Part shown: positions 12,166 through 32,674 of the stretch, piece by piece | Position numbering within the stretch: the stretch's first letter is position 1 | Layout: every line of letters begins with the position of its first letter | Source: Chloroflexia bacterium | GTDB lineage: Bacteria; Chloroflexota; Chloroflexia; Thermomicrobiales; CFX8 | Length of the DNA stretch: 34,646 nucleotides | Assembly: GCA_030431755.1 (NCBI GenBank) | Contig: JAUIIK010000047.1 | Location: 1 to 34,646, forward strand | Direction: 5' to 3' | Program-made: the position numbers and the translations under genes | The notes under the pieces: generated by a model | Databases searched by the model: none | Told to the model about the DNA's origin: nothing | Seen by the model: only the letters and a program-made list of their open reading frames with translations

Positions 12166-12276
12166 CCGTCTGTCTGCCTCCGGTCGCATATATGCTACGC
12201 GTCGCGTTGAACTGTAATCGCTGAACGGTGCCCGTACTACTGATTTCCGATGGAGTGGTATGTTCGACTGGTACGT

Positions 12277-12591
12277 GTGGAGTTCATCTCACCATTCATG
12301 CATCAGGTTGAGCCGTTTGCTTGTGGTGCGCCCGAGGGATCTTGTTGCGAGCGTGCCACCCGTTGGCGCAGTAGGCGGTGGTCGATCCCGCTGTAGCGAC
12401 TGGCACAGTCTTCCTAGGAGCGTGGCGCTGGCGGTCGGAGATCCCTCAGGCGCAAAGCCTTCCTCGGGATGCCAGCCTCAGGGCGGGGCGTTGGTAAACG
12501 ACGGTGCTTGGCGGTGTGCGGCGGAAAGTCCGGGCGCAATCTTCTTGTCACACACCTAACTTGATGCGTGAAGGGTGGAGTTCATCTCACC
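12277..12591. repeat. Dispersed intergenic element, copy A (internally deleted) with flanking 17-bp direct repeats
   Basis: Terminal inverted repeats lie at about 12294-12312 and 12557-12574 (core TTCATGCATCA / TTGATGCGTGAA). The core consists of a truncated left arm (12328-12342), a 96-bp spacer (12343-12438) and a right arm (12439-12471). GTGGAGTTCATCTCACC occurs in direct orientation immediately outside both ends (12277-12293 and 12575-12591). The copy is on the opposite strand to copy D at 26996. Short open frames across it are not coding. The remaining gap bases, 12190-12276 and 12592-12795, hold only the candidate -10 box listed separately. Confidence 0.8.
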
Positions 12592-18620: not shown

Positions 18621-18920
18621 CTTTCATGCATGAAGGTAAGGCGTTCGCTAGCGGTGTGCCCGAAATCGGTTGGTATGCACCACCTCGCAGTAGGAGCCAC
18701 AGCAACAACCGTGGCATCCCGACGCAGGAGGGATCTTGTTGCGAGTGTGTTACATGCCGGTGCGAGGAAGCGCTGACAACAACGCTGTCGCGACGGGCTC
18801 CGTGCCTCAGGATGCCAAGCGGCGCTGGATAGCTCCAAGTGAATGCAGGTTGGCGCCGCATGCGCGGAGCATGCGAACTCGATGCTCTACCGCTAGCTCC
18901 TAACTTGATGCATGATGAGT
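18621..18920. repeat. Dispersed intergenic element, copy B
   Basis: The ends carry CATGCAT cores in inverted orientation (18621-18636 and 18903-18919). The inside shares about 45 bp with copy C1 with one mismatch (18697-18741 here). Inverted arms are built on GGCATCCCGACGC and GCCTCAGGATGCC, with a shorter spacer than copies A, C2 and D. A conserved hairpin, GAGCAT-9-ATGCTC, lies near the right end. The copy sits in the middle of the heptamer palindrome 18561-18963. No coding potential is seen. Confidence 0.72.
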
Positions 18921-18924
18921 CCCC

Positions 18925-18963
18925 TCTGCTAGAACCTATGACCTATCCCCTATAACCTTCCCA
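18925..18963. repeat. G-rich heptamer array, right arm of a split palindrome
   Basis: TCTGC (18925-18929) is followed by TAGAACC, TATGACC, TATCCCC and TATAACC, the complement of the left arm's units. The stop codon of the minus-strand oxidoreductase gene (18950-18952) lies within it. Confidence 0.75.
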
Positions 18964-19318
18964 AATCTATTTCGACCGGGAATGAGCGTTGGGCCCAGTC
19001 GGAGAGCGGTTGCTCGTCGGTCCAGTTGTGGTACTTGGCGTCGAGTCTTTGGCGGGCGCGTGGGTCCTGCTCCTCGCCCTCAATCCCCCGGGCCGTGCCG
19101 GCATAGGTTGTGTCCGCGATGCGGACGGTGACGGTCGGGTTGTTGAGCAGGTTGCTTACCCAGTCGCTCTTGCGGCCGCCGCCGGAGAGCATAAAGATGC
19201 GGTCTCCGGCATCCTGCGCGAACCAGATCTCGATCTCATGCGGTTTGCCGGTGACCCGGCCGGTCGTTGTCAGATAACAGAGCCGTTCGGCCGCGTGCTC
19301 GTCGGTCAGGACAGTCAT
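18950..19318 (-). CDS. Nitroreductase/deazaflavin (F420)-dependent oxidoreductase family protein
   Basis: The ATG at 19318 has GGAGG six bases upstream and gives 122 residues. LTTTGRVTGKPHEIEIWF (16-33) is the signature of the DDN-like split-barrel family, and MLSGGGRKSDWVSNLLNNP (about 43-61) is the second conserved block. In actinobacteria and Chloroflexota these bind F420H2 or flavin and reduce quinones or nitro compounds. The protein is cytosolic. The last codons and the TAG stop lie in the G-rich heptamer array, so the array has set the C-terminus. It is divergent from the MOSC gene, with a 132-bp gap. Confidence 0.82.
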   Translation of the reverse strand: MTVLTDEHAAERLCYLTTTGRVTGKPHEIEIWFAQDAGDRIFMLSGGGRKSDWVSNLLNNPTVTVRIADTTYAGTARGIEGEEQDPRARQRLDAKYHNWTDEQPLSDWAQRSFPVEIDLGRL

Positions 19319-20268: not shown

Positions 20269-20509
20269 TGGCGGGAAGGAACCCGAGTGAGAAGCTACGC
20301 GGCCGGCCCGCGCGGTTGTCACGCAATCTATAACCGTCCCGCGCCTGCCGTTATTCCCGCTATTAGCCATTGGGCTACGGCATGGGCCAGACGATCAGGT
20401 GATTTCGTGCCAAACGTGAATTCATAGTAATGTCATCTCGCGCCGACGTCAATATTTTATTCACAGGGCATGAATCAATTCGGATCGATGCCGGATGGAG
20501 CGGTCATTG

Positions 20510-21940
20510 ATGCGCCGCGTGCCAGTCGTCATGCTCCTACTTCTCTCTAGCCTGGCCGCGCTCGGCTTGAGCAGGCAACCAACCCCGCCTCCGGCCATCG
20601 GCGACGCCGAAGCGGAGATGCTGCTCTACGATCTCACGCACACCGGCGGCCAGGCTGCCGAGGCTGCGATGGCGCGTGTTCTCGCTGCCCGGGACCGGCG
20701 CTTTATCGCCGCCTTCATCGAGCTTCAGCGCGCGCTTGTCTTCGACACCGACCGCGACGACCACCTCGCAACGCTCGAAGCGCTCAGCGGCCAGCGCTTT
20801 GGCCGCGACTGGGTCGCCTGGCGCGAGTGGTATGCCGCCACGGACTATCAGCCGCCGCCGGGCTTTACTGCCTGGAAGGGCATTCTCCTCGGCAGGATCG
20901 ATCCCGGCTTGCGCACATTCCTCTACGAGGATGCCCCCACGACGATCCGGGTCGAAGAAATCGTCTGGGGTGGTGTCACCGTCGATGGCATCCCGCCGCT
21001 CGAACAACCACCCATGCTGGCGGCGGCCAGTGCAACCGAACTGCTGGAAGACGAGCCGGTTTTCGGTCTCGTCGTCAACGGCGAAGCCCGCGCCTACCCG
21101 CTGCGGGTGATGGACCAGCACGAGATGGCGAACGACGTCGTTGGCGGCGAGCCGGTCAGCCTGGCCTACTGCACGCTCTGCGGGGCGGGCATCGCCTATC
21201 GCACAACCCAGCCCGACGGCACCGTGTTCGACTTCGGCACGTCGGGGCTGCTCTATCGCAGCAATAAGCTCATGTATGACCGCCAGACGTGGACGCTCTG
21301 GAACCAGCTGACCGGCGTGCCGGTCGTCGGCGAGCTGGCTGGAAGCGACATCAGGCTGGAGATCCTGCCGCTTGTCTTGACGACCTGGGGCGCATGGCGC
21401 GCCGAGCATCCCGAGACGCTGGCGCTCGACCTCGACACCGGCTTCGACCGCCAATACCTGCCGGGCACGCCTTATGCTGAGTACTTCGCCAGCTCCGGCA
21501 CCTGGTTCCCGACACCGGGTGAGGATGATCGTCTGCCACCGAAGACGCAGGTCTTCGCCATCGAGCTCAACGGCGCGCCGAAGGCCTACCCGCTCGACGC
21601 GGTGCTGGCTGCCGGGATCGTGCATGATGACCTTGGCGGCGTCGAGATCGTCCTTCTCGGCTCCGGCGAGAACATCACCGTCGACGCGCTAACCCCGGAG
21701 GATGTCGGCATCAGCTACGCGGCCGGCGGGGCGGTCCGGGCCTACGCGCGCGACGGCCAGCGCTTTCGCCCCGGCTTGGATGGCGCAACGCTGATCGACG
21801 AGAGTGGCGCAGAATGGCGGATCACCGAGGAAGCGCTGCTTGGCCCGGCCGGTCAACGTCTGGAGCGGCTACCAGGCCACCTCGCCTTCTGGTTCGGTTG
21901 GTCGAGCTTCTTCCCCGACACTGCTGTTTACAGCCCGTAG
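20510..21940 (+). CDS. Secreted DUF3179 domain-containing protein
   Basis: The ATG at 20510 is chosen because GGAG lies nine bases upstream; ATG 20495, in frame, would add five residues. The N-terminus MRRVPVVMLLLLSSLAALGL is a signal peptide. The DUF3179 domain is clear: GEARAYPLRVMDQHEMANDV, AYCTLCGAGIAYRT with two cysteines, FGTSGLLYRSNKLMYDR and WNQLTGVPVVGELAG. Its C-terminal repeat-like half has KTQVFAIELNGAPKAYPLDA. The family is widespread in envelopes of Chloroflexota and others, without an established activity. The CxxC pair may bind a metal or heme, which is inference. Confidence 0.9.
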   Translation: MRRVPVVMLLLLSSLAALGLSRQPTPPPAIGDAEAEMLLYDLTHTGGQAAEAAMARVLAARDRRFIAAFIELQRALVFDTDRDDHLATLEALSGQRFGRDWVAWREWYAATDYQPPPGFTAWKGILLGRIDPGLRTFLYEDAPTTIRVEEIVWGGVTVDGIPPLEQPPMLAAASATELLEDEPVFGLVVNGEARAYPLRVMDQHEMANDVVGGEPVSLAYCTLCGAGIAYRTTQPDGTVFDFGTSGLLYRSNKLMYDRQTWTLWNQLTGVPVVGELAGSDIRLEILPLVLTTWGAWRAEHPETLALDLDTGFDRQYLPGTPYAEYFASSGTWFPTPGEDDRLPPKTQVFAIELNGAPKAYPLDAVLAAGIVHDDLGGVEIVLLGSGENITVDALTPEDVGISYAAGGAVRAYARDGQRFRPGLDGATLIDESGAEWRITEEALLGPAGQRLERLPGHLAFWFGWSSFFPDTAVYSP

Positions 21941-21973
21941 CCGAGCGGGGCGCGTGAGGCGCCCGCATTCGGC
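21940..21973 (+). terminator. Strong hairpin overlapping the DUF3179 stop codon
   Basis: GCCGA...TCGGC encloses GCGGGGCGC-GTGAG-GCGCCCGC, a long GC-rich stem with one bulged G. It begins at the last base of the stop codon. No T tract follows, so it may be an intrinsic-like terminator or a 3' protective hairpin. Confidence 0.4.
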
Positions 21974-21975
21974 CG

Positions 21976-22180
21976 GCACGTAGCGCCATGCAACAGACGC
22001 CAGAGCAACAACCGTGGCATCCCGACGCAGGAGGGATCTTGTTGGGACCGGGCCACATGCTGGCGGGATGAGATGCGCGTCGGGATGCCCCGTGCGGTGC
22101 TGGATACTCCGAACGGCTAACGGTTGGTGTCGTACCACGGAGCATAAGGACTCGATGCTCTACCACTGAGGCTTAACCTG
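21976..22180. repeat. Dispersed intergenic element, copy C1
   Basis: It shares the block GCACGTAGCGCCATGCAACA and a 45-bp segment (22001-22045, one mismatch) with copies D and B. GGCATCCCGACGC and GCGTCGGGATGCC form inverted arms. The conserved GAGCAT-9-ATGCTC hairpin is near its right end. It is followed directly by copy C2. Confidence 0.65.
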
Positions 22181-22202
22181 CACGGTTCCCGGACTCGGTC
22201 GG

Positions 22203-22509
22203 CGCGCAGCGCCATGCAGTAGACGCCACAGCAACACCATGGTCATCCCGAGGAAGGCTTTGCGCCCGAGGGATCTCCGATCGCCAGCGCCACGCTCCGT
22301 GGAAGCCTGTCCTGGTCGGTGCAGTGCTGTCGGTCACCGTTTACGGCACCAGCGGGTGGCACGCCCGCAACAAGATCCCTCGGGCACAGAGCCTTCCTCG
22401 GGATGCCAGGTTCGGAGCGGAACGTTCATAAACGACGGTGCTTGGCGGCGTGCGATGGTGAGCACGGGCACGATCTTCCTGCCCTACATCTGACTTGACG
22501 TATGAGAGG
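22203..22509. repeat. Dispersed intergenic element, copy C2 (core inverted)
   Basis: 33-bp arms at 22244-22276 and 22373-22405 match as an inverted repeat at 31 of 33 positions and enclose a 96-bp spacer. Outer flanks match copy A and the reverse strand of copy D, for example AAACGACGGTGCTTGGCGG shared with A. The spacer, however, runs in the opposite direction relative to those flanks. The bases from 22510 to 22585 show no gene. Confidence 0.75.
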
Positions 22510-22585: not shown

Positions 22586-24040
22586 TCACGTTGAAAGCAG
22601 GCTGCCCAGCTTGGCAATGCCCTCGTCGATCGCCGCGGGCGGCACAGCCGAGTAGCAGAGGCGAAACTGATGCTTGCCGGACCCGTCGGCGTAGAACGCG
22701 TCGCCGGGCACGAAGACGACCCCCTCGGCTTCGGCGCGGCGCAGCAGCTCGCGGCTGTCCAGCCGGTTACGAAGCGTGAGCCAGAGATACATGCCACCCG
22801 TCGCCGGTTCGAGCGCTAGCAGACCGGGCGGAACATGTTCTTCCAACGCATCGAGCATGCAGGTTGCGCGGAGCTGATGTTCCCCGCGCAGACGCTGGAT
22901 GTGCTGGTTGAAGAAGCTGCCAGAGAGCATACGCGCGACGAGGAACTGCTCGATGCCGGGAGAGGTCACGTCGCTACGTTGTTTGAAGAGCTTCAGCTGG
23001 TCGATGATCTCCTCGGCTGCCGCGACGAGCCCGATCCGCAGCCCGCCGGCCAGCGTCTTGGAGAAGGTGTGAATGTGAATTACGAGCGCATTGCGGTCGA
23101 GGCTAAACAGTGTCGGCGGGGGCGCGGGACGCCTACCGGGCCCGTCGAAGCCCAGCTCGCGGTAGGGCTCGTCTTCGAGGATCGGCAGCCGGTAGCGGTT
23201 GGCGAGCTCGAGGAGATCCTGCCGCACGCTCCGCCGCAGCACCCGACCAGTCGGATTTTGGAAGGTCGGATTGGTGTAGAGCAGCTTGGGCCGGTAGCGC
23301 ACGATCAGATCCTCGAGCTCATCAAGGTCGGCGCGCTCGATGTCCCAGCCGATGATGCTCGTGCCGGAAGCCCGGAAGATATGGAGCGCTCCGAGATAGC
23401 CGGGACGATCCATGATCACAGTGTCGCCGGGATCAAGCAGGCAGCGGGCCACGAGGTCGATACCCTGGGTCGCGCCGGCGACGACCAGCACTTGCTCTGG
23501 GCGAGCGCCAACGTGCTGCGCTCCTGCCGACCGTAGTTCGGGCTGGCCTGCGGTCGGCGACGGGGCCAGGACGCGCAGCGAGTAGCGTTCCAGAACCTCG
23601 ACGAGCGCCGTCTGGAGCTTCTCGATGGGGAAGGTGTCGACCGCCGGCAGGGCCGCGGCGAAGGTGATAACCGGCCCAAGCGGGTAGCCCTCGCTCGCCG
23701 CGTTGGTGATCCAGCCAACGGTGGGATCGAGCGTCCGCAGCGCGCCGAGCGAGACTTTCCCGCGCCATGCGAAGGGCGCGTCGGTGTGGTCGGGCCGGGC
23801 ATCGACGAAGGTGCCCCGGCCGACCTGGCCGCGCACGAGCCCCCGCGCCCGCAGCTCATCGTAGGCGTTGATGACGGTCGTGCGGCTGACCTCCAGCTGC
23901 GCCGCCAGATCCCGCTCCGAGGGCAGGCGTTCGCCGGGGCTTAGCTCGCCGCTGTCGATGGCCGCCACCAGCGCGTCGCAGAGTTGCAGGTAGAGCGCGG
24001 TATCCCGGCTGCGGTCGAGTCCGATCGCTGCATAGTTCAT
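22586..24040 (-). CDS. MocR-type GntR regulator with PLP aminotransferase-like domain
   Basis: The 484-residue protein starts at ATG 24040. An N-terminal GntR winged helix (ALYLQLCDALVAAIDSGELS, then LPSERDLAAQLEVSRTTVINAY) occupies 1-80. A fold-I aminotransferase domain follows (about 115-480), with NPTFQNPTGRVL, DEPYREL and the PLP-binding Lys328 in TFSKTLAGG. MocR regulators sense amino-acid-like effectors through PLP. It is divergent from azlC-azlD, and its promoter puts the transcription start at the ATG, so the message is probably leaderless. The most likely target is azlCD, exporting branched-chain or related amino acids. Full-length for the family, no lesions seen. Confidence 0.93.
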   Translation of the reverse strand: MNYAAIGLDRSRDTALYLQLCDALVAAIDSGELSPGERLPSERDLAAQLEVSRTTVINAYDELRARGLVRGQVGRGTFVDARPDHTDAPFAWRGKVSLGALRTLDPTVGWITNAASEGYPLGPVITFAAALPAVDTFPIEKLQTALVEVLERYSLRVLAPSPTAGQPELRSAGAQHVGARPEQVLVVAGATQGIDLVARCLLDPGDTVIMDRPGYLGALHIFRASGTSIIGWDIERADLDELEDLIVRYRPKLLYTNPTFQNPTGRVLRRSVRQDLLELANRYRLPILEDEPYRELGFDGPGRRPAPPPTLFSLDRNALVIHIHTFSKTLAGGLRIGLVAAAEEIIDQLKLFKQRSDVTSPGIEQFLVARMLSGSFFNQHIQRLRGEHQLRATCMLDALEEHVPPGLLALEPATGGMYLWLTLRNRLDSRELLRRAEAEGVVFVPGDAFYADGSGKHQFRLCYSAVPPAAIDEGIAKLGSLLST

Positions 24041-25200: not shown

Positions 25201-25299
25201 TAGGGATTAGGGAGCAGGGATTGGGGATTAGTGTGGAGTCAGGGAATCGCAGATCATTCTGCTGTCCCCTGTAACCTACAACCTATCCCCTTCCCCCTA
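25201..25299. repeat. Palindromic heptamer array between azlD and the RidA-like gene
   Basis: The left arm is TAGGGAT, TAGGGAG, CAGGGAT, TGGGGAT (25201-25228). The centre is GCAGA-TCAT-TCTGC (25249-25262). The right arm is TGTCCCC, TGTAACC, TACAACC, TATCCCC, TTCCCCC (25263-25297). The RidA-like stop codon (25297-25299) is formed at the end of the last unit. Confidence 0.8.
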
Positions 25300-26094: not shown

Positions 26095-26168
26095 GTAGGG
26101 ATGGGGCTTGTCCCCATCCGGCAAGGCGAGTGCGTACGTACGCGGATGGGGACAAGCCCCATCCCTAC
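26095..26168. repeat. Nested palindrome with perfect 26-bp arms
   Basis: Arms at 26095-26120 and 26143-26168 are perfect reverse complements separated by 22 bp. Each arm is also a hairpin on its own (GGATGGGG-5-CCCCATCC). The spacer ends in GCGTACGTACGC. The rest of 25783-26254 contains a 12-bp palindrome at 25839-25850 and no gene. Confidence 0.85.
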
Positions 26169-26995: not shown

Positions 26996-27393
26996 GGAGT
27001 GGGATTCATCTTCATCTTTCGTGCATCAAGATGAGGCTTGGACAGGAGGACTGCGCCCATTCTTTCCACCGAACGCCGCCAAGCGGCATCCATGACGCGC
27101 CCCCCTCTCCGAAGCTGGCATCCCGAGGAAGGCTCTGCGCCCGAGGGATCTTCGGCCGCCAGCGCCGCGTTCCGAGGAAGACTGTCGCTGTCGCTACAGT
27201 CCAGTAGATCATCGTCTCATGCACCGGCGGCTGGCATGCTCGCAACAAGATCCCTCGGGCGCAAAGCCTTTCTCGGGATGTCCATGGTGTTGCTGTGGCG
27301 TCTGTTGCATGGCGCTGCGTGCTGTCAGCTCTGGGGCGCACCGCAAGCGAACGGCTCAATTTGATGCTTGAAAGGTGAGATGAACTCCACTCC
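26996..27393. repeat. Dispersed intergenic element, copy D (longest copy)
   Basis: Terminal inverted repeats of about 39 bp lie at 26996-27035 and 27355-27393 (outer end GGAGTGG, inner core GCATCAA). The core has 33-bp inverted arms at 27119-27151 and 27248-27280 (31 of 33 matching) and a 96-bp spacer. It matches copy A on the opposite strand from end to end, apart from A's deletion. No coding potential. Confidence 0.82.
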
Positions 27394-31151: not shown

Positions 31152-31255
31152 GGAACAGGGGATAGGTGACAGGTTTTAGGGTATAGCAGAGTCGGGAAGC
31201 AACGCGTTCTGCTGTCCCCTGTAACCTGTCCCCTATCCCCTTATCCCCTATCCCA
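31151..31255. repeat. Palindromic heptamer array between two convergent genes
   Basis: The left arm is AGGAACA, GGGGATA, GGTGACA, GGTTTTA, GGGTATA and GCAGA (31151-31190). After 17 bp come TCTGC, TGTCCCC, TGTAACC, TGTCCCC, TATCCCC and two further units to 31255. The arms match at about 28 of 33 positions. The array starts at the last base of one stop codon and contains the other (31248-31250). Confidence 0.85.
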
Positions 31256-32183: not shown

Positions 32184-32280
32184 GGCCTCGCCTTTCCCTA
32201 TGATGTATCCGGCTGCACGCTAGCACAGCAGCGTTGACGATTGGACGAAACAACACAGGACCAAATCCTCCATCACTCTC

Positions 32281-32497
32281 GTCATTCTGAGCGGAGGCTC
32301 GGCGGGTACCCTCTGGGTGCGAAGAATCCAAGAGTCGGACGTACGGTGGAAGCGGTGCGGTACGAAGCTCGCATCAATCGGCCGCTATCGAGCACGAACA
32401 CCTGCTCAAGCCATCAATCGAATCGAGTGGCCCCGATCGTAATGAGTTGGATTCTTCGCACCCAGAGGGTACCCGCCGAGCCTCCGCTCAGAATGAC
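32281..32497. repeat. Perfect 51-bp inverted repeat with 115-bp spacer
   Basis: Arms 32281-32331 and 32447-32497 are exact reverse complements over 51 bp (outer end GTCATTCTGAGCGGAGG, inner end GAAGAATCCAA). The spacer has no open frame of note. The outer sequence resembles a common bacterial intergenic repeat beginning GTCATTCTGAGC. The rest of 32184-32674 shows no gene except the possible extended N-terminus of the transporter. Confidence 0.92.
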
Positions 32498-32674
32498 ATG
32501 GGTGGAGGAGGCCTGGACTTACAGAAAGCCTGAGTTGGACGACGCCTGGCAGCGGCCTGCTGCCCGAATTGCACTGCTTTTTGAACGAAGGAACAGACAA
32601 TCGCAGCGGACCGCAACGACTCCCCACTCCCAGCCCACGCCTCCCTGAACTGGCGGCCCGAGCTCGTCTACTGG

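What the first reader, a model, noticed from the sequence alone, without database searches (positions are those of the whole stretch)
22203..22509. Invertible 96-bp core: orientation flipped in copy C2
Copies A, C2 and D have the same plan: 33-bp inverted arms around a spacer of exactly 96 bp. Relative to their outer flanks, A and D carry the spacer in one orientation (GCAACA end facing the CCACAGCAACA flank) and C2 carries it reversed. Recombination between the arms would produce this, so the core behaves like an invertible segment. It may be a switch or simply a trace of past inversions.
Basis: seen in the sequence. Interest (0 to 1): 0.7.

Follow-up and report, generated by a model that had tools for sequence, protein, structure and literature searches.

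The report
Repeat family whose core flips
A 162-bp hairpin unit inside a ~400-bp interspersed repeat of a Chloroflexota genome has had its 96-bp loop turned around in place several separate times, most likely by rare copying errors between its matching arms rather than by a gene switch, which makes it a tidy natural record of a known mutational process.

Summary
In detail: C2 (22203-22509) has 33-bp inverted arms (31/33) around a 96-bp core, and the core is reversed relative to its flanks compared with copies A and D (A's left arm is truncated). C2 belongs to a family of about 40 scored copies in this 5.1-Mb Chloroflexota genome, not found in relatives, the rest of the class, or a 400-genome phylum sample. 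Of 40 copies, 34 carry the core one way and 6 the C2 way. The six are not a subfamily: the tree needs six changes, and the AU test rejects one clade (p=0.0036). Their arms are mosaic (outer part stays with the flank, inner part travels with the core), which places the exchange inside the arms: in-place inversion, not re-insertion. A sister family with poorer arms shows no flips (0/~36). Copies sit mostly between convergent genes (23 vs 3 divergent), including C2, so a promoter switch is unlikely; unbiased fast flipping is rejected. Best reading: rare, independent, arm-mediated spacer inversions (template switching or short-homology recombination) in a REP/BIME-like non-autonomous repeat. A biased trans-acting recombinase is not excluded. 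New member of a known kind; modest interest.

The parts
22174..22243 (+). Left flank (L) of copy C2, 'type I' variant
   Evidence: aligned with L flanks of 34 other copies
22244..22276 (+). Left 33-bp arm of C2 (CATCCCGAGGAAGGCTTTGCGCCCGAGGGATCT, equals family consensus)
22277..22372 (+). 96-bp core of C2, in the minority (flipped) orientation
22373..22405 (-). Right 33-bp arm of C2, 31/33 matching the left arm
22406..22503 (+). Right flank (R) of C2
22510..22531 (-). Outer right end of C2: hairpin tagged GTAG (GTAGGGGCGTGATTCATCACGT on the minus strand), REP-like
   Evidence: sequence; outer ends of other copies; RAYT-associated GTAG repeats
21961..22173 (+). Copy C1: sister family with 22-bp imperfect arms, abutting C2 (C2's own left outer end is missing)
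12327..12564 (+). Copy A: left arm truncated to 16 nt (12327-12342), core 12343-12438 in majority orientation, right arm 12439-12471, R flank
27119..27350 (-). Copy D: arms 27119-27151 and 27248-27280, core 27152-27247 in majority orientation relative to flanks, L flank to about 27350; its R flank lies at about 27020-27118
18658..18907 (+). Copy B: C1-type sister-family copy
20495..21940 (+). Flanking gene, DUF3179 protein; its 3' end faces C1/C2
   Evidence: Pfam PF11376, E 1.6e-79
22586..24040 (-). Flanking gene, GntR-type regulator with aminotransferase domain; its 3' end faces C2 (convergent)
   Evidence: Pfam PF00392 and PF00155

Best explanation
The element is a ~400-bp, non-coding, REP/BIME-like interspersed repeat: outer GTAG-tagged hairpin ends, then L flank, 33-bp arm, 96-bp core, inverted 33-bp arm, R flank. 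The arms allow the strand to form a long hairpin. Rarely, an exchange inside the arms turns the core around in place. It could be DNA polymerase template switching between the arms during replication, or short-homology recombination. Each inversion is an independent, roughly neutral event at one locus, because the arms, and so the hairpin, look the same afterwards. Shown from sequence: two orientations, independent origins, exchange inside the arms. Inferred: the replication/repair mechanism, neutrality, and mobilisation of the whole element by the genome's RAYT.
For: 34:6 orientation split in 40 copies. Flipped cores have no class signature: identity within the flipped class 0.749, between classes 0.752. 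Tree: six label changes, one clade rejected, flipped L013 and unflipped L021 are sisters at 99/91. Arm mosaic: the outer marker (arm position 10) stays with the flank and the inner markers (positions 23-24) travel with the core. The best common crossover lies at positions 20-22 (range about 16-22), 12.9 log units better than 'whole arm moves with the core' and 5.8 better than 'whole arm stays'; 0 of 2000 random unflipped sets matched this. Flips occur where arms are 33 bp and near-perfect (6/40) and not in the sister family with 22-bp imperfect arms (0/~36, p = 0.026). ML rate about 0.8-1 flip per copy per substitution per site, i.e. rare. Convergent placement, 23 vs 3 divergent, gives no promoter role. 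Template switching between inverted repeats is reported to invert spacers, repeatedly and with a preference for longer arms (PMC8604942).
Against: A biased, fast trans-acting recombinase fits the tip states at least as well (lnL -16.7 vs -17.5 to -17.8). Template switching is expected to homogenise arms, but arms within a copy are no more alike than arms from different copies (0.899 vs 0.904). Reported spacer inversions are usually much shorter (chloroplast 4-50 bp, yeast coding spacers 2-5 substituted bp), so 96 bp is long. Only six flips are known, so the arm statistics rest on few copies.
Confidence: 0.72

Rival explanations
1. Site-specific inverton system: a tyrosine or serine recombinase acting in trans recognises the 33-bp arms at all dispersed copies and flips the cores, with a strong bias to one orientation.
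For: The genome encodes seven Phage_integrase and three Resolvase domain proteins. Crossover inside the arms is also what a site-specific enzyme would give. A fast biased model is not worse on the tree. Trans-acting master invertases for many loci are known (Mpi of Bacteroides fragilis, described in PMC5903667).
Against: No integrase or resolvase hit lies next to a copy; the nearest found is about 4 kb away (C131). Five of six flipped copies are between convergent genes and none is divergent. No promoter-like site at C2. Arms belong to a wider hairpin-repeat motif with 103 hits, many unpaired, unlike a dedicated site. Unbiased fast flipping is rejected.
Confidence: 0.1
2. Separate re-insertion: the 162-bp arm-core-arm unit is a mobile sub-element that inserted into the outer element in either orientation.
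For: The unit is palindromic-ended, and truncated or hybrid copies exist.
Against: The arms of flipped copies are mosaic, so the outer arm part did not move with the core. L and R flanks abut the arms at the same place in both classes. No empty outer element was seen among the copies examined.
Confidence: 0.04
3. An old subfamily with fixed orientation that spread by transposition.
For: Four of six flipped copies have the type I left flank (4/6 vs 7/28, p = 0.07).
Against: Six changes on the tree, AU p = 0.0036, and no shared core or R-flank signature.
Confidence: 0.04
4. Assembly artefact: the assembler turned cores around through the inverted arms of a short-read metagenome assembly.
For: The genome is in 272 contigs, and orientation rests on assembled contigs only; L010 has two identical 33-bp arms.
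Against: In five of six flipped copies the longest exact stretch shared by the arms is 9-16 bp, shorter than usual assembly k-mers. The 162-bp unit is within reach of ordinary read pairs (general knowledge).
Confidence: 0.07

Closest known systems
Inverted-repeat spacer inversion by template switching (Saccharomyces coding genes, PMC8604942)
   Same: Spacer between inverted arms is reversed while the arms stay; recurrent in parallel; favoured by longer arms
   Different: Here the spacer is 96 bp rather than a few bp, in a dispersed non-coding bacterial repeat; arm homogenisation is not seen
Hairpin-associated small inversions of chloroplast DNA (reviewed in PMC12371153)
   Same: Recurrent, homoplastic inversion of a hairpin loop in non-coding DNA
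   Different: Those are typically 4-50 bp at single loci; here many dispersed copies of one repeat family in a bacterium
GTAG-type REPs, REP dimers (BIME/REPIN) and RAYT transposases (PMC3733652)
   Same: GTAG-tagged hairpin ends in head-head arrangement, high copy number, intergenic, mostly convergent or unidirectional; one RAYT with GTAG repeats in this genome; Chloroflexi known to carry them
   Different: The element is ~400 bp with a nested second pair of inverted arms; mobilisation by the RAYT is not shown; core inversion was not mentioned in the passages read
Phase-variable invertons (fim, Cdi sites; PMC5903667)
   Same: Inverted repeats around a short DNA segment found in two orientations
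   Different: No adjacent recombinase, no promoter-like site, convergent gene context, strong orientation skew, read-level mixture unknown

Membership tests
Phase-variable inverton | Segment flanked by inverted repeats occurs in both orientations | tested here: met
   34:6 among copies, but across loci, not at one locus
Phase-variable inverton | Both orientations coexist in one population at one locus | not testable with these tools
   no reads available
Phase-variable inverton | Recombinase dedicated to the site, usually adjacent | tested here: inconclusive
   none beside the copies; 7 integrase-type and 3 resolvase-type genes elsewhere
Phase-variable inverton | Segment positioned to control a neighbouring gene | tested here: not met
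   C2 and 4 of the 5 other flipped copies lie between convergent genes, 1 tandem; no promoter-like site at C2
IR-mediated spacer inversion (microinversion) | In-place inversion with breakpoints inside the arms | tested here: met
   arm mosaic, best crossover at arm positions 20-22
IR-mediated spacer inversion (microinversion) | Recurrent, homoplastic | tested here: met
   six changes on the tree; one clade rejected
IR-mediated spacer inversion (microinversion) | Dependence on arm length and identity | tested here: met
   6/40 vs 0/~36 in the sister family with poorer arms, p = 0.026
IR-mediated spacer inversion (microinversion) | Independence of RecA or of a site-specific recombinase | not testable with these tools
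   needs experiments
GTAG REP / BIME (RAYT-mobilised) | GTAG-tagged hairpins at the element ends | tested here: met
   many copies end in GTAG(G) plus palindrome, inverted at the two ends, with degeneration in others
GTAG REP / BIME (RAYT-mobilised) | Cognate RAYT flanked by the same repeat | tested here: inconclusive
   one Y1_Tnp gene (C174, L050:1396-1968) flanked by related but different GTAGGGATGGGGCTCGTCCCCATCC repeats
MITE | Terminal inverted repeats with target-site duplications | tested here: inconclusive
   inverted outer ends seen; no target duplication established

The most novel reading that the evidence does not exclude
A single trans-acting recombinase flips about 40 dispersed, near-identical non-coding units between genes, with a strong orientation bias: a genome-wide multi-site inverton that does not work through promoters (for instance through antisense transcripts or hairpin RNAs between convergent genes).
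Probability: 0.07. Interest if true: 0.75.

Novelty: new member of a known kind. Interest (0 to 1): 0.36.

Why it matters
It gives a clean natural experiment in one bacterial genome: dozens of copies of one inverted-repeat unit, with independent inversions and an arm-quality contrast (33-bp vs 22-bp arms), from which a per-copy inversion rate relative to substitution can be estimated. It also warns that two orientations of a segment between inverted repeats do not by themselves mean a phase-variable switch; the gene context and the family tree are needed. Inverton predictors that rely on inverted repeats could call such REP-like repeats wrongly.

Tried and rejected
Fixed subfamily: rejected by tree, AU test and class consensus. 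Re-insertion of the arm-core-arm unit: disfavoured by arm mosaics. Known RNA family: no Rfam match in the window. tRNA association: none. Plasmid origin: no match. Same element in other species: nothing beyond 26-41-nt scraps in 60 relatives, the rest of the class (158 genomes searched) and 400 genomes of the phylum; exact-pattern scans of genome contigs and viral contigs found nothing, so no orthologous locus with the other orientation could be compared. Pairing-driven co-evolution or arm conversion within copies: none. Promoter or terminator motifs at C2: none. Literature search for the arm motif as text listed only papers that look unrelated by title.

Full report
Observation. C2 was checked first. 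Its arms at 22244-22276 and 22373-22405 are 33 nt and 94% complementary, with exactly 96 nt between them, and the unit folds far better than shuffled sequence (z -8.07). Cutting C2 into L flank, arm, core, arm and R flank and searching each piece shows the core reversed relative to the flanks in A and D. One detail of the finding is wrong: copy A keeps only 16 nt of its left arm (12327-12342), the outer part and the L flank being deleted.

Family. The window's genome (5.15 Mb, 272 contigs) gives 90 matches to C2, many in both strands at one place, which is what a flipped core looks like. I fetched 37 further copies and scored 40 in all: 34 have the A/D orientation, 6 the C2 orientation (C2, L009 on contig C188, L010 on C144, L011 on C147, L012 on C172, L013 on C236). 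Typical copies have the order outer hairpin end, L flank (~75 bp), arm, core, arm, R flank (~100 bp), outer hairpin end, about 400 bp in all. The element was not found in 60 relatives, in the other 157 genomes of the class, or in a 400-genome sample of the phylum, apart from scraps of 26-41 nt. Protein relatives of a flanking gene come mostly from Chloroflexota MAGs.

Independent inversions. When cores are turned to one direction, the consensus of the flipped class differs from that of the unflipped class at only a few positions, and no alignment column separates them strongly. Mean core identity is 0.749 within the flipped class and 0.752 between classes. Flanks tell the same story. On a maximum-likelihood tree of the whole element the label needs six changes; holding the six together as one clade is rejected (AU p = 0.0036; core alone 0.018, flanks alone 0.036). 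Flipped L013 and unflipped L021 are sisters with 99/91 support. Much of the tree is poorly resolved, so the exact number of events is uncertain; more than one is well supported.

Where the exchange happened. In unflipped copies the left arm often carries a non-G at position 10 (12/28 against 1/28 in right arms), and the right arm often carries changes at positions 23-24. In the flipped copies the outer marker stays with the L flank (2/6 on the left, 0/6 on the right) while the inner changes are on the left arm, next to the same core end as before. A likelihood scan over crossover positions peaks at 20-22; moving the whole arm with the core is 12.9 log units worse and leaving the whole arm with the flank 5.8 worse; none of 2000 random sets of unflipped copies gave such a gain. 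This is what in-place exchange within the arms gives. It argues against re-insertion of the unit.

Arm dependence and rate. A sister family (C1 and B type, about 36 copies examined) has 22-bp arms with a mismatched middle; I saw no flipped core there by eye (0/~36 vs 6/40, Fisher p = 0.026). A two-state model on the tree gives a best rate of about 0.8-1 flip per copy per substitution per site. An unbiased fast model is about 9 log units worse; a fast model with 15% flipped is not worse (lnL -16.7). So a symmetric fast switch is excluded, a strongly biased one is not.

Context. By a simple ORF caller 23 of 37 copies lie between convergent genes, 11 tandem, 3 divergent; since a circular chromosome has equal numbers of convergent and divergent gaps, 23:3 is a real bias (p about 9e-5). 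Five flipped copies are convergent and one is tandem. C2 itself lies between the 3' ends of a DUF3179 gene and a GntR/aminotransferase gene. No promoter- or terminator-like site was found there. REPs are known to lie mostly between convergent or unidirectional genes (PMC3733652).

Element type. The outer ends are GTAG-tagged hairpins pointing outwards, like head-head dimers of GTAG REPs, which are known from Chloroflexi (PMC3733652). The genome has one RAYT-type transposase gene (Y1_Tnp, contig C174), flanked by a related GTAG hairpin. That the RAYT moves this element is inference. The arms belong to a wider hairpin motif, CATCC(C/T)GAG...GA(A/G)GGATCT, with 103 hits in the genome and none for the reversed control pattern.

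Mechanism. Template switching between inverted repeats is reported to invert spacers, recurrently and with a preference for longer arms (PMC8604942), and hairpin-associated small inversions are common in chloroplast DNA (PMC12371153). The present case works like these. One expected by-product, homogenised arms, is not seen, so recombination between short homologies is an alternative within the same explanation. Site-specific recombinases exist in the genome but not beside the copies. Assembly error is unlikely because the arms of five flipped copies share at most 16 identical bases in a row. Read-level mixture remains untested.

Noticed in passing
L050:1396-1968 (genome G000:C174:26.5 kb): RAYT-type Y1 transposase gene (190 aa) flanked by inverted GTAGGGATGGGGCTCGTCCCCATCC hairpins, i.e. 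a REP/RAYT system in this Chloroflexota genome.
   Followed up: partly
window 26095-26168: REP dimer (26-bp perfect inverted repeat, GTAGGGATGGGGCTTGTCCCCATCCG) of the same kind as the repeats flanking the RAYT.
   Followed up: partly
window 32267-32331 / 32447-32511: 65-bp inverted repeat (92%) with a 115-bp spacer, whose arms begin like the wider motif (GTCATTCTGAGCGGAGGCTCGGCGGGTACCC...); another hairpin with a long loop that could flip.
   Followed up: no
L112, L118, L130, L123 (sister C1-type family, inner edge of the left arm): CTCGCAACGA (or CTCGCAGCGA) in place of the usual CTTGTTGCGA, close to its reverse complement: a possible ~8-10-bp microinversion in a few copies.
   Followed up: no
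window 12260-12342 (copy A): L flank and outer half of the left arm lost by a deletion that joins at a shared motif near GTGCGCCCGAG.
   Followed up: partly
L045:1079-1404: A copy whose inner unit carries an inserted stretch with another hairpin repeat (GTAGGGGCGTGATTCATCACGCCC); L030's left flank holds a near-identical stretch.
   Followed up: no
L106, L113, L117, L123, L126, L129: Hybrid copies with a C1-type left arm and a C2-type core and right arm, all unflipped; recombination between the two sister families.
   Followed up: partly
L027 and L041, left of the arm: The left flank resembles the reverse complement of the R flank, so these copies have R-like flanks on both sides.
   Followed up: no
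window 18924-18964, 25257-25297, 31207-31247: Three copies of a 41-nt stretch of short CCTATCCCC/CCTGTAACC-like units.
   Followed up: no
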